Shown here: positions 58,724 through 62,365 of the stretch, piece after piece
How positions within the stretch are numbered: position 1 is the stretch's first letter
How the letters are laid out: every line of letters begins with the position of its first letter
Assembly: GCF_010727945.1 (NCBI RefSeq)
Contig: NZ_AP022569.1
Location: forward strand, 1,612,001 to 1,676,000
Length of the DNA stretch: 64,000 bases
Direction: 5' to 3'
From: Mycobacterium cookii
GTDB taxonomy: Bacteria; Actinomycetota; Actinomycetes; Mycobacteriales; Mycobacteriaceae
Made by a program: the position numbers and the translations under genes
Notes under the pieces: generated by a model
The model's input: only the letters and a program-made list of their open reading frames with translations
The model's database searches: none
Told to the model about the DNA's origin: nothing

Positions 58724-58796
58724 GCGCCGTTAGCTCAGTTGGTAGAGCAGCTGACTCTTAATCAGCGGGTCCGGGGTTCGAAACCCTGACGGCGCA
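58724..58796 (+). tRNA. tRNA-Lys (anticodon CTT), island attachment site
   Basis: Acceptor GCGCCGT/ACGGCGC with discriminator A. Anticodon stem GCTGA/TCAGC encloses loop CTCTTAA, giving CTT. T-arm CGGGG-TTCGAAA-CCCTG. Complete 73-nt cloverleaf. From the anticodon loop (58755) to 58792 it is identical to 62323-62360, so the tRNA keeps its function after an insertion at its 3' half. Confidence 0.95.
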
Positions 58797-58797
58797 C
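58755..58797 (+). repeat. attL-like direct repeat (tRNA-Lys 3' half)
   Basis: Forty-three bases beginning at the anticodon loop (CTCTTAATC...) match 62323-62365 with one difference (C at 58793, T at 62361). The first 38 bases are perfect. Starting inside the anticodon loop and running to the tRNA 3' end is the classic pattern of attB use by tyrosine integrases. Confidence 0.85.
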
Positions 58798-58849
58798 TCG
58801 GTTTGACCAGGGGTTTTAGGCCAAATTAAGCCAGTTGCATCGCTGGGTT

Positions 58850-59040
58850 TTAAGCCATCTCGGCATATCCACCCTGGTTATTCGGCGTTTCGGCCCCGCA
58901 GTGCTCGCATACCCACCGGCTCACGCTCCCCGTCGGTCCCGGTCAGATCGCCGACAACCTGAATTCGGGCCAGCCAAACATGCCCGAATTCACGCAACGC
59001 GGTGAAGTGCTCAACGGTGAGGCCAACAGGCTGGTTGATC
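58850..59040 (-). pseudogene. Degraded, frameshifted phage-like coding remnant
   Basis: One minus-strand frame reads INQPVGLTVEHFTALREFGH and on through VWLARIQVVGDLTG to a TAA at 58878, without any ATG/GTG start after the DUF305 stop. A second frame picks up from a GTG at 58924, VSRWVCEHCGAETPNNQG, and ends at 58850. The second frame has a zinc-finger-like CxxC. Joining both by a single shift gives one plausible protein end. It has the look of a small mobile-element gene that lost its 5' part. Family not recognised. Confidence 0.4.
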
Positions 59041-59086
59041 CTTGGCGTTGGCCATCGCCGCCTATTTGCTTGCGCTGCAGGCGCTC

Positions 59087-59710
59087 TTACGGGTAGGCCA
59101 TCGGGGCGCTGCCGCGTTGCTTGAGGAGGAACGCCATGAAGATCACTTCCTGGCTCTGTTCATCGATCATGGCCACCGCGGTCTGGTGCACGCTGCCGGT
59201 GGAGCTGTGTTGCGTGACGTAGGCCGCCATCTCGATGCCGCCTTGGTGGTGACGCGTCATGAGTTGCAGGAACAGGACTTCGTTGTCGCGGCCTGTGGCC
59301 CGTTGTAGGAGGGTGAGGTCTGCCGGTGACGCTAGGCCAGCCATCTTGATGCCGCCACCACCCATGTGGTGACCGGTGTCAGCCGTCATCCACGCCATGG
59401 GGAGCGGCGAGACGACGGGTGCACCGGCCAGTTGAAGCCACCCCGTCATCTGTCCGATCTCGCGGAGTTGGGTGAGTCTGATCTGATCGGCCAGCGCGCG
59501 CACCTCGGGGGCTGCATCCCTGGCGACCATGTCGGACATGGTGATCGCCTGCTGATGGTGGGCCGACATGTCTTGTGCGAAGCCGATATCGGTGGCCGTC
59601 AGCGGCGTTACCGGCCCCCGTGCGAAGACAACGACCGCGACCGCGCCCACGATCGCTGCTGCGAGGAGTTGGACGATCCGGGCCGCGATCGGCTGCCAGG
59701 CTGGCGTCAT
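59087..59710 (-). CDS. DUF305 protein, membrane-anchored
   Basis: A 207-residue protein with an N-terminal transmembrane/signal segment (about 8-30) and a DUF305 helical domain outside the membrane. Characteristic His pairs are seen in MSAHHQQAITMSDMV, the GHHMGGGG loop and TRHHQGGIEMAAYV. DUF305 is a ferritin-like fold found next to copper-handling genes; metal binding is inference. The ATG at 59708-59710 overlaps the upstream gene's stop (ATGA, 4 nt); upstream codons of the frame fall inside that gene. Second gene of the island's LVIVD-DUF305 pair. Confidence 0.88.
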   Translation of the reverse strand: MTPAWQPIAARIVQLLAAAIVGAVAVVVFARGPVTPLTATDIGFAQDMSAHHQQAITMSDMVARDAAPEVRALADQIRLTQLREIGQMTGWLQLAGAPVVSPLPMAWMTADTGHHMGGGGIKMAGLASPADLTLLQRATGRDNEVLFLQLMTRHHQGGIEMAAYVTQHSSTGSVHQTAVAMIDEQSQEVIFMAFLLKQRGSAPMAYP

Positions 59711-61273: not shown

Positions 61274-61302
61274 AGTACAAGAGGCAATGTTGACTTTGCC
61301 TG

Positions 61303-61959
61303 GTGAGCGTCGAGACCCGCAGCCGTCGATCCCCGCGAGGCGACAACACCCGGGCGACAATCCTCACCGCAGCAGAGAAGCTCTTCGCCGAACATGGGAT
61401 CGCGGCGGTCTCGCACCGGCAGATCGTCGCCGCAGCACGGCAAGGCAACGGCGCCGCGATCGGCTACCACTTCGGCACCACGACGGACCTCGTTCGCGCC
61501 ATCGAAGACAAGCACGGCGACCACATCGAATCGCTGCGCACCCGAACCATCTCCGACATGGGCTCCTCGCCCGGGTTGCGGGACTGGGTGGCGTGCCTGG
61601 TGCTGCCGCTGACCGACCACTTGAGCGCCATCGGCACACCGAGTTGGTATGCGCGGTTCGCCGCTCAGGTGCTGACCGATCCCACCTATCGGCGGATCAT
61701 CATCAAGAACAGCTTCGAATCAGCGAGTCTGCACCACGTCGTCGAAGAGATCGGCCGCGCACTGCCGGAGGTGCCCGAGCAGGAGCTTGCCGAACGCAGC
61801 GTCATGATGCGCACGATGCTGATCTACACCTGCGCTGAATTCGAACGTGTGCTCGCCGAGGGAAATCCGTCACCGTGGCCGCACTGGCCCGCGGCCGCGC
61901 ACGGTTTGATCGACGGCATCGTCGCTCTGATGCAAGGTCCTGTCACACGCCTGGATTAG
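61303..61959 (+). CDS. TetR-family regulator of the island
   Basis: A 218-residue regulator. N-terminal HTH: ILTAAEKLFAEHGIAAVSH followed by RQIVAAARQGNGAAIGYHFG, the TetR pattern with YHFG in place of YRHF. The C-terminal part is helical, with the WYARFAAQVLTDPTYRR segment typical of TetR groups with a short loop. Start GTG at 61303. Divergent from LVIVD-DUF305, so likely an autoregulated repressor of that pair; the ligand is unknown. Confidence 0.85.
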   Translation: MSVETRSRRSPRGDNTRATILTAAEKLFAEHGIAAVSHRQIVAAARQGNGAAIGYHFGTTTDLVRAIEDKHGDHIESLRTRTISDMGSSPGLRDWVACLVLPLTDHLSAIGTPSWYARFAAQVLTDPTYRRIIIKNSFESASLHHVVEEIGRALPEVPEQELAERSVMMRTMLIYTCAEFERVLAEGNPSPWPHWPAAAHGLIDGIVALMQGPVTRLD

Positions 61960-61968
61960 CGGCGGGTC

Positions 61969-62079
61969 ATGGCACTCAAGACAGAGAACATCACCTTCGA
62001 CACCACTGATCCCGAAGGTCTCGCCGCATGGTGGGTACGCACCCTCGACGGTCAGGTAAACCCATTGCCCCACCGTTGA
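61969..62079 (+). pseudogene. Truncated VOC (glyoxalase-like) gene
   Basis: A frame of 36 codons (ATG 61969 to TGA 62077-62079) reads MALKTENITFDTTDPEGLAA, then WWVRTLDGQVNPLP. This is the typical first strand and helix of a VOC-superfamily protein. After that the homology stops, and the following 240 bp give no continuation in any frame, so the rest of the gene was lost. It sits 9 bp after the TetR stop, at the island's far end. Confidence 0.6.
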
Positions 62080-62322
62080 AGGATGCCACGCTGGCGTATG
62101 AAAAACCGTACAAAGTTGTAGGCGCGGGCAAAGATCCACTGACACTAGGCTAACGATTAAGCCAAGACCCGCTGACCCCATTGAGCCATGTATTAAGCCA
62201 TTGCTGCAAGTGCGTTTGACCAGCAGTTTTAGCTTAAGGCCCGAATACTTGAAAACCCCTAAGGTGTCTTGACGTGGGAACTTTTGTCGCCTGGCCGGAG
62301 CTCCCTACGGCGTATCCAGCTT
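62080..62322. other. Island right-end non-coding region
   Basis: About 243 bp between the VOC fragment and the tRNA remnant. It contains TTAAGCCA at two sites and TTTGACCAGCAGTTTTAGC near 62214. A similar TTTGACCAGGGGTTTTAGG lies at the left end of the island (58802). Such repeats at both ends could be integrase arm sites or leftovers of the attachment region. No gene found. Confidence 0.4.
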
Positions 62323-62365
62323 CTCTTAATCAGCGGGTCCGGGGTTCGAAACCCTGACGGTGCAC
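62323..62365 (+). repeat. attR-like tRNA-Lys 3' fragment
   Basis: Forty-three bases equal to the 3' half of tRNA-Lys (58755-58797) with one C-to-T difference. The 5' half of a tRNA is absent before it, so this copy cannot be functional. It marks the distal boundary of the inserted segment, about 3.57 kb from the intact tRNA. The next gene stop is 15 bp away. Confidence 0.85.

What the first reader, a model, noticed from the sequence alone, without database searches (positions are those of the whole stretch)
58724..62365. Small genomic island inserted in tRNA-Lys(CTT) with 43-bp attachment repeats
The 3' half of the tRNA (from the anticodon loop) recurs 3.57 kb downstream: 38 bp perfect, 43 bp with one mismatch. 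This is the signature of tyrosine-integrase integration, and genes between the copies do not belong to the conserved M. tuberculosis-like order around them. No integrase remains, so the element is fixed or cannot move by itself.
Basis: partly seen in the sequence, partly recalled or inferred. Interest (0 to 1): 0.75.

Follow-up and report, generated by a model that had tools for sequence, protein, structure and literature searches.

The report
Integrase-less island in mycobacterial tRNA-Lys gene
A 3.5 kb piece of DNA sits in a mycobacterial lysine-tRNA gene at a site many mycobacterial viruses use; it still bears the landing marks of the viral-type enzyme that most likely put it there, but not the enzyme.

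Summary
The 3' half of tRNA-Lys(CTT) (58755-58797) recurs at 62323-62365, 42 of 43 bases identical. The DNA between them is an island: it is absent from all 62 related loci where both sides of the site are in view.

The repeat equals the att core of 20 mycobacteriophage records, so insertion by a lambda-like tyrosine integrase is well supported. New here: the inner ends keep what look like the integrase's arm-type sites. ATTAAGCCA occurs three times in 64 kb, at 58825, 62156 and 62192 (0.01 expected), arranged much as in phage attP sites.

One other genome of 396 (unnamed, G302) has the same sites around a 4.0 kb element in the same tRNA gene. Its cargo is unrelated and it also lacks an integrase. 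No integrase remnant was detected in either.

The cargo is a DUF305/LVIVD-repeat operon, a TetR gene and the start of a glyoxalase-like gene. Composition is not foreign-looking.

Best class: a CIME-like (cis-mobilizable) remnant at a known hotspot. No integrase-bearing relative or helper was found. Whether such elements only decay, or travel on another element's integrase, is open.

The parts
58724..58797 (+). tRNA-Lys(CTT), the target; intact at the left junction
   Evidence: ARAGORN
58755..58797 (+). att core, left copy (attL), anticodon loop to 3' end
   Evidence: identical in 20 mycobacteriophage records
58801..58819 (+). repeat GTTTGACCAGNNGTTTTAG, left copy; role unknown
   Evidence: 2 matches in window, 0 in 100 shuffles
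58815..58823 (+). weak P'-arm-like site (TTTAGGCCA)
   Evidence: 2 mismatches
58825..58833 (+). putative P'-arm site ATTAAGCCA
58849..58857 (+). putative P'-arm site TTTAAGCCA, same offset from the core (+52) as the ATTAAGCCA of the G302 element
59087..59812 (-). DUF305 (CopM-like) gene; likely start 59710 (by eye), overlapping the stop of the upstream gene
   Evidence: PF03713 136 bits; CopM model 64.5 bits, under its cut-off of 90
59707..61215 (-). LVIVD-repeat protein gene, 502 aa, signal-peptide-like N terminus (by eye)
   Evidence: 872 homologues, several named LVIVD repeat-containing by sources; no Pfam family by itself
61303..61959 (+). TetR-family regulator
   Evidence: PF00440, PF17939
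61969..62079 (+). start of a glyoxalase-like (VOC) gene, cut off after about 29 codons
   Evidence: PF18029 18.9 bits, below its cut-off of 23.6; translation
62156..62164 (+). putative P-arm site ATTAAGCCA
62180..62188 (+). putative P-arm site, variant ATTGAGCCA
62192..62200 (+). putative P-arm site ATTAAGCCA
62214..62232 (+). repeat GTTTGACCAGNNGTTTTAG, right copy
62323..62365 (+). att core, right copy (attR), one mismatch

Best explanation
A small element entered by lambda-like tyrosine-integrase recombination between an attP with a 43-bp core and the host tRNA-Lys(CTT) gene (the counterpart of M. smegmatis attB-2). Its attP supplied a new 3' half, so the tRNA stayed intact at the left. The integrase gene is not there now. 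By analogy with Keshu, Nergal and Tweety it should have stood just left of the P-arm sites (before 62156); a glyoxalase-like gene cut after about 29 codons and unassigned sequence stand there instead, so loss by deletion at the right end is likely. What is left is a CIME-like element: attL, attR and cargo without integration or transfer genes. Shown: core, clustered arm-like sites, intact tRNA, absence in relatives, no integrase remnant detected. Inferred: that the sites bind an integrase, that int was deleted, and a metal-handling role of the cargo.
For: 43-bp core repeat, equal to the core in 20 phage records with 13 phage names. ATTAAGCCA only 3 times in 64 kb, all beside the cores. Arrangement like phage attP: 7 of 10 attP sites examined repeat a 7-mer at least twice in P and once in P'. 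int lies on the P side in Keshu, Nergal and Tweety. Second element with the same att features in G302. Island absent in 62 of 62 loci with both sides in view, and no match in what is held of 15 others. No integrase remnant in six frames, with three positive controls detected.
Against: Composition is like the flanks. No strain of the same species was available, and no relative with a seamless empty site. No integrase-bearing element with these arms was found: 396 genomes by exact arm pair, 297 by arm-to-core pattern, viral-contig scans. The arm motif was picked after looking; random segment pairs of the window share an 8-mer in the same way in 1.8% of trials and reach the shared-word counts in 0.7-1.4%. 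3 of 10 phage or viral-contig attP sites showed no such repeat.
Confidence: 0.78

Rival explanations
1. The element did not carry an integrase when it came: it belongs to a family of small non-autonomous elements that keep attP with ATTAAGCCA arms and use the integrase of a phage or other helper.
For: Two elements with unrelated cargo share the arm motif and a site at the same +52 offset, and both lack an integrase. The lowest-E DNA match between them is the arm cluster, 26 bp at 88%, E 0.012.
Against: Only 2 cases. No helper with these arms was found. Independent loss gives the same picture, and short C-terminal integrase ORFs at this tRNA in L048 and L072 suggest that such loss happens.
Confidence: 0.18
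2. Remnant of a temperate mycobacteriophage that used attB-2 (overlaps with the best explanation, since a decayed phage could also end as attL, attR and cargo).
For: The core is shared with many mycobacteriophages.
Against: No phage-collection match for the inside of the island. The cargo has relatives on chromosomes and a plasmid. Arm words differ from those of the phages examined.
Confidence: 0.1
3. The second core is a chance or duplicated tRNA half, with no island boundary.
For: Composition does not change at the boundaries.
Against: Arm-like sites beside both copies, island absent in 62 of 62 loci, a second case in G302.
Confidence: 0.02

Closest known systems
CIME (cis-mobilizable element), as defined in PMC5704250 (passages seen)
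   Same: Keeps attL and attR, has no integration or transfer genes found, sits in a hotspot beside other variable DNA
   Different: Descent from an ICE or IME is not shown; the core points to a phage-type integrase. No mobilisation shown.
Integration systems of mycobacteriophages at tRNA-Lys(CTT), attB-2 (Hammy, Aminay, DS6A, RonRayGun and, listed there as attB-4, ShedlockHolmes; PMC10865867, passages seen; Keshu, Nergal, Tweety)
   Same: Core of similar length starting in the anticodon loop, tRNA kept, repeated words on both sides of the core at similar distances
   Different: ATTAAGCCA was not the repeated word in the phages examined; no int and no phage genes found
Candidate PICIs of Mycobacterium (PMC10654092, passages seen)
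   Same: Small integrated elements, some at tRNA genes
   Different: Those were sought as regions with an integrase and a capsid gene; neither was found here

Membership tests
CIME | attL and attR retained | tested here: met
CIME | integration and transfer genes lost | tested here: met
   none among the four ORFs scanned with Pfam and NCBIfam; six-frame integrase search negative, with positive controls; transfer genes were looked for only by those family scans
CIME | derived from an ICE or IME | tested here: inconclusive
   no relative with int or transfer genes found
CIME | can be mobilised in cis after accretion of another element | not testable with these tools
   needs a living strain
autonomous tyrosine-integrase element | own integrase gene | tested here: not met
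autonomous tyrosine-integrase element | core at tRNA 3' half with arm-type sites on both sides | tested here: met
   by sequence; binding not tested
prophage or PICI | phage structural genes | tested here: not met
tRNA-dependent lysogeny element | host tRNA broken and replaced by a phage copy | tested here: not met
   tRNA intact at attL

The most novel reading that the evidence does not exclude
Mycobacteria host a family of very small integrase-free elements, each with different cargo but the same attP arms (ATTAAGCCA), that enter tRNA-Lys(CTT) using the integrase of an unknown helper. They would be the site-specific-integration counterpart of MITEs, and searches that start from integrase genes would miss them.
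Probability: 0.15. Interest if true: 0.65.

Novelty: new member of a known kind. Interest (0 to 1): 0.4.

Why it matters
It suggests that integrase-less islands can be recognised, and tied to an integrase type, from arm-type sites beside the att cores alone. The survey of mobile regions in Mycobacterium whose passages I saw (PMC10654092) started from integrase, transposase or capsid genes and would pass over such elements. Two elements with the same arms and different cargo make it testable whether cargo-only islands travel on a helper's integrase.

Tried and rejected
Chance or decayed tRNA copy: rejected (arm-like sites, absence in 62 of 62 loci, second case). Prophage remnant by content: no phage match inside. 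Island on plasmids: only a part of the operon at about 68% on a Tsukamurella plasmid (38% of the query), and a 37-bp core-like match on five M. avium plasmids of about 18 kb; the two of these read hold no exact ATTAAGCCA. Helper integrase: scans for paired arm sites gave low-GC or unrelated viral contigs; of 238 contigs screened by profile 11 integrase-like segments were found, two in high-GC contigs (L357, L362), looked at and set aside, as was L304. The third tyrosine recombinase of the host genome, besides two Xer-like ones (my reading), is only distantly related and has no ATTAAGCCA in the 14 kb fetched around it. A complete glyoxalase-like partner of a related TetR gene, as the source of the cut gene: not found in the 31 loci searched. 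Neighbours of the DUF305/LVIVD operon elsewhere: no common theme, but only 10 proteins from 5 of 8 loci fetched. A regular-expression screen for integrases found none in 77 loci; I judged it too strict, and the profile screen replaced it.

Of the other 15, 10 hold at least 4.8 kb downstream of the tRNA and 5 hold 7 to 2721 bases. The right core of the G302 element is 6860-6902 and the element 4043 bp; searches used an end one base further, so the P-site distances they print for G302 are one too large.

Full report
WHERE IT IS. The window is G000:C1:1612001-1676000 of a 5.32-Mb single-contig genome that the tools leave unnamed; its relatives are Mycobacterium. Gene order left of the island (HerA-like ATPase, Orn-like, tRNA-His, LppS-like L,D-transpeptidase, tRNA-Lys) resembles M. 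tuberculosis as I recall it; the names Orn, LppS, bcp and fas are recalled, the HerA and YkuD/Big domains come. Downstream of the window lie a 920-aa zf-HC2/AAA ATPase gene, an unassigned ORF, a bcp-like gene and a fatty-acid-synthase-like gene.

OBSERVATION. tRNA-Lys(CTT) at 58724-58797 is intact. Its last 43 bases recur at 62323-62365 with one mismatch. There are no other copies within 8 mismatches in the window or the following 32 kb. Composition inside is like outside (GC 0.58-0.68), so the case for insertion does not rest on composition.

ABSENCE IN RELATIVES. 80 named loci were fetched through the LppS protein (143 stretches encoded a relative, the best 80 were kept). 77 carry an intact tRNA-Lys core; L016, L026 and L061 were dropped (diverged core, or none in the stretch held). 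The island gives no match in any of them (with 58798-61260 as query, leaving out the TetR gene, which has many paralogues). In 62 of the 77 the conserved flank before the bcp-like gene is in view, so absence at the site is certain there. Of the other 15, 10 hold at least 4.8 kb downstream of the tRNA and 5 hold 7 to 2721 bases. In the 62, the projected distance from tRNA end to flank runs from about 0 to 7941 bp, with 8 loci at 44 bp or less (M. kyorinense, M. celatum, M. leprae, M. lepromatosis, M. palustre, M. simulans, Mycobacterium sp. MFM001 and MAG Bu41). So the site is a hotspot and the empty state exists. The right flank of the window (ATPase gene) is itself extra DNA relative to these eight; L057 has it 137 bp after the tRNA without the island, and L007 has it 2.78 kb after the tRNA behind a TIR-like (by eye)/WD40 gene. 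No seamless empty site with the same right flank was found. The left end (58798-59090) has no substantial match in 297 genus genomes: 7 have a hit, one being the genome itself and the others 27-41 bp long. In 396 genus genomes (2 candidates scored in each) the only match over the whole island is itself; 15 genomes have the DUF305/LVIVD operon at 68-71% identity.

ATT SITE. The 43-bp core is identical in 20 mycobacteriophage records with 13 phage names. Longer att-region queries matched 298 and 297 phage records, 255 of them Mycobacterium in each; in the 60 rows shown for each the match is the core, in one row with 3 more bases. Published work places such phages at tRNA-Lys(CTT) with cores of 33 to 49 bp and putative arm-type sites on both sides of the core; for the related Boilgate at tRNA-Lys(TTT), strand exchange is placed between the left end of a 43-bp core and its first mismatch (PMC10865867, passages; PMC5679795, passage). 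In Keshu, Nergal and Tweety the integrase gene lies beside the P side of the core.

ARM SITES. ATTAAGCCA occurs 3 times in the 64-kb window, at 58825, 62156 and 62192 (expected 0.01; none of 100 shuffles reached 3). Variants stand at 62180 (ATTGAGCCA) and 58849 (TTTAAGCCA). The motif was chosen after inspection, so that expectation understates chance. Broader nulls from random window segments give 0.7-1.4% and 1.8%. Support from outside: of 16 phage or viral-contig att regions fetched, 11 were given to the script and 10 were examined. 7 of the 10 (Keshu L173, Nergal L176, L161, L164, L167, L169, L170) have a 7-mer repeated at least twice in P, at about -100 to -152 (a second word of L170 nearer), and at least once in P' at +29 to +96; L162, L168 and L172 do not. 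Tweety was skipped by the script because its core differs by a base there, and shows such repeats by eye. The window has P sites at -167, -143 and -131 and P' sites at +28 and +52, so its P sites lie somewhat further out.

SECOND ELEMENT. A pattern of two ATTAAGCCA 3-30 bp apart occurs in 2 of 396 genus genomes, G000 and G302; the reversed control pattern occurs in none. In G302 the sites lie in a 4043-bp element between an intact tRNA-Lys(CTT) (L267:2743-2816) and a perfect second core at 6860-6902. P sites: -143, -119 and -108; P' site: +52, the same offset as one site in the window. Both elements have GTTTGACCAG three bases after the core. The joined pattern is matched without mismatch only in G000 and G302; the other 16 of 18 matching genomes have 2-3 mismatches, at about the level of the reversed control (21 by my count). 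Cargo is unrelated: a DUF3800 gene and small ORFs, no translated match at E 0.01 between the elements; their lowest-E DNA match is the arm cluster, 26 bp at 88%, E 0.012.

NO INTEGRASE DETECTED. A profile and single-sequence search with six recombinases finds no remnant in six frames of either element (best E 0.05), while Tweety and the short integrase ORFs of L048 and L072 are found by the profile. The host genome has two Xer-like genes and one further tyrosine recombinase of 471 aa. In the window, the place left of the P arm where these phages keep int holds the first 29 or so codons of a glyoxalase-like gene (weak match) and unassigned sequence.

CARGO. Two overlapping genes: an LVIVD-repeat protein (872 homologues at E <= 0.001 among 8000 scored; nearest are metagenomic at 88% full length and 97% over 71%) and a DUF305 protein with two HH motifs (PF03713; motifs by eye). 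DUF305 proteins include the copper-binding CopM of Synechocystis (PMC4335983, passages), but the CopM model is under its cut-off here. A TetR gene is divergent. A metal-handling role at the envelope is an inference, about 0.35 likely.

READING. The evidence supports site-specific insertion (this part at about 0.9) followed by loss of int (about 0.7). The definition that fits is the CIME (PMC5704250, passages), without proof of ICE or IME descent. Two int-less elements with the same arms and different cargo keep open a family moved by a helper's integrase. The literature searches listed no paper that I recognised as being on this island; that is a statement about those listings only.

Noticed in passing
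L087:6380-9142 (window 62380 onward) and L007:6966-9761: A zf-HC2/AAA (NACHT-like) ATPase gene, and in L007 a TIR-like (by eye) WD40 gene, occupy the same tRNA-Lys site; possibly a defence-type module.
   Followed up: partly
L048 (M. montefiorense), L072 (MAG RYN_163), downstream of tRNA-Lys: Second cores (1 mismatch) 9.0 and 5.2 kb from the tRNA, with short C-terminal integrase-like ORFs of 132 and 168 aa: other decaying islands at this site.
   Followed up: partly
L174:9961-9997, L175:12566-12602 (M. avium p18K-type plasmids): A 37-base tRNA-Lys 3'-half-like stretch with an altered anticodon arm, no tRNA gene found and no exact arm sites, on plasmids of about 18 kb.
   Followed up: partly
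window 58801-58819 and 62214-62232; L267 about 2820: GTTTGACCAG-containing repeat just inside the core at attL and 91-109 bp inside attR, shared in part with the G302 element; role unknown.
   Followed up: partly
several loci among L027-L079: In many loci the tRNA-Lys lies about 5 kb from lppS instead of about 0.2 kb, extra DNA on the other side of the tRNA.
   Followed up: no
L178 (Tsukamurella tyrosinosolvens plasmid): A DUF305 gene and LVIVD-like neighbour also occur on a plasmid, near a zinc ABC transporter.
   Followed up: no
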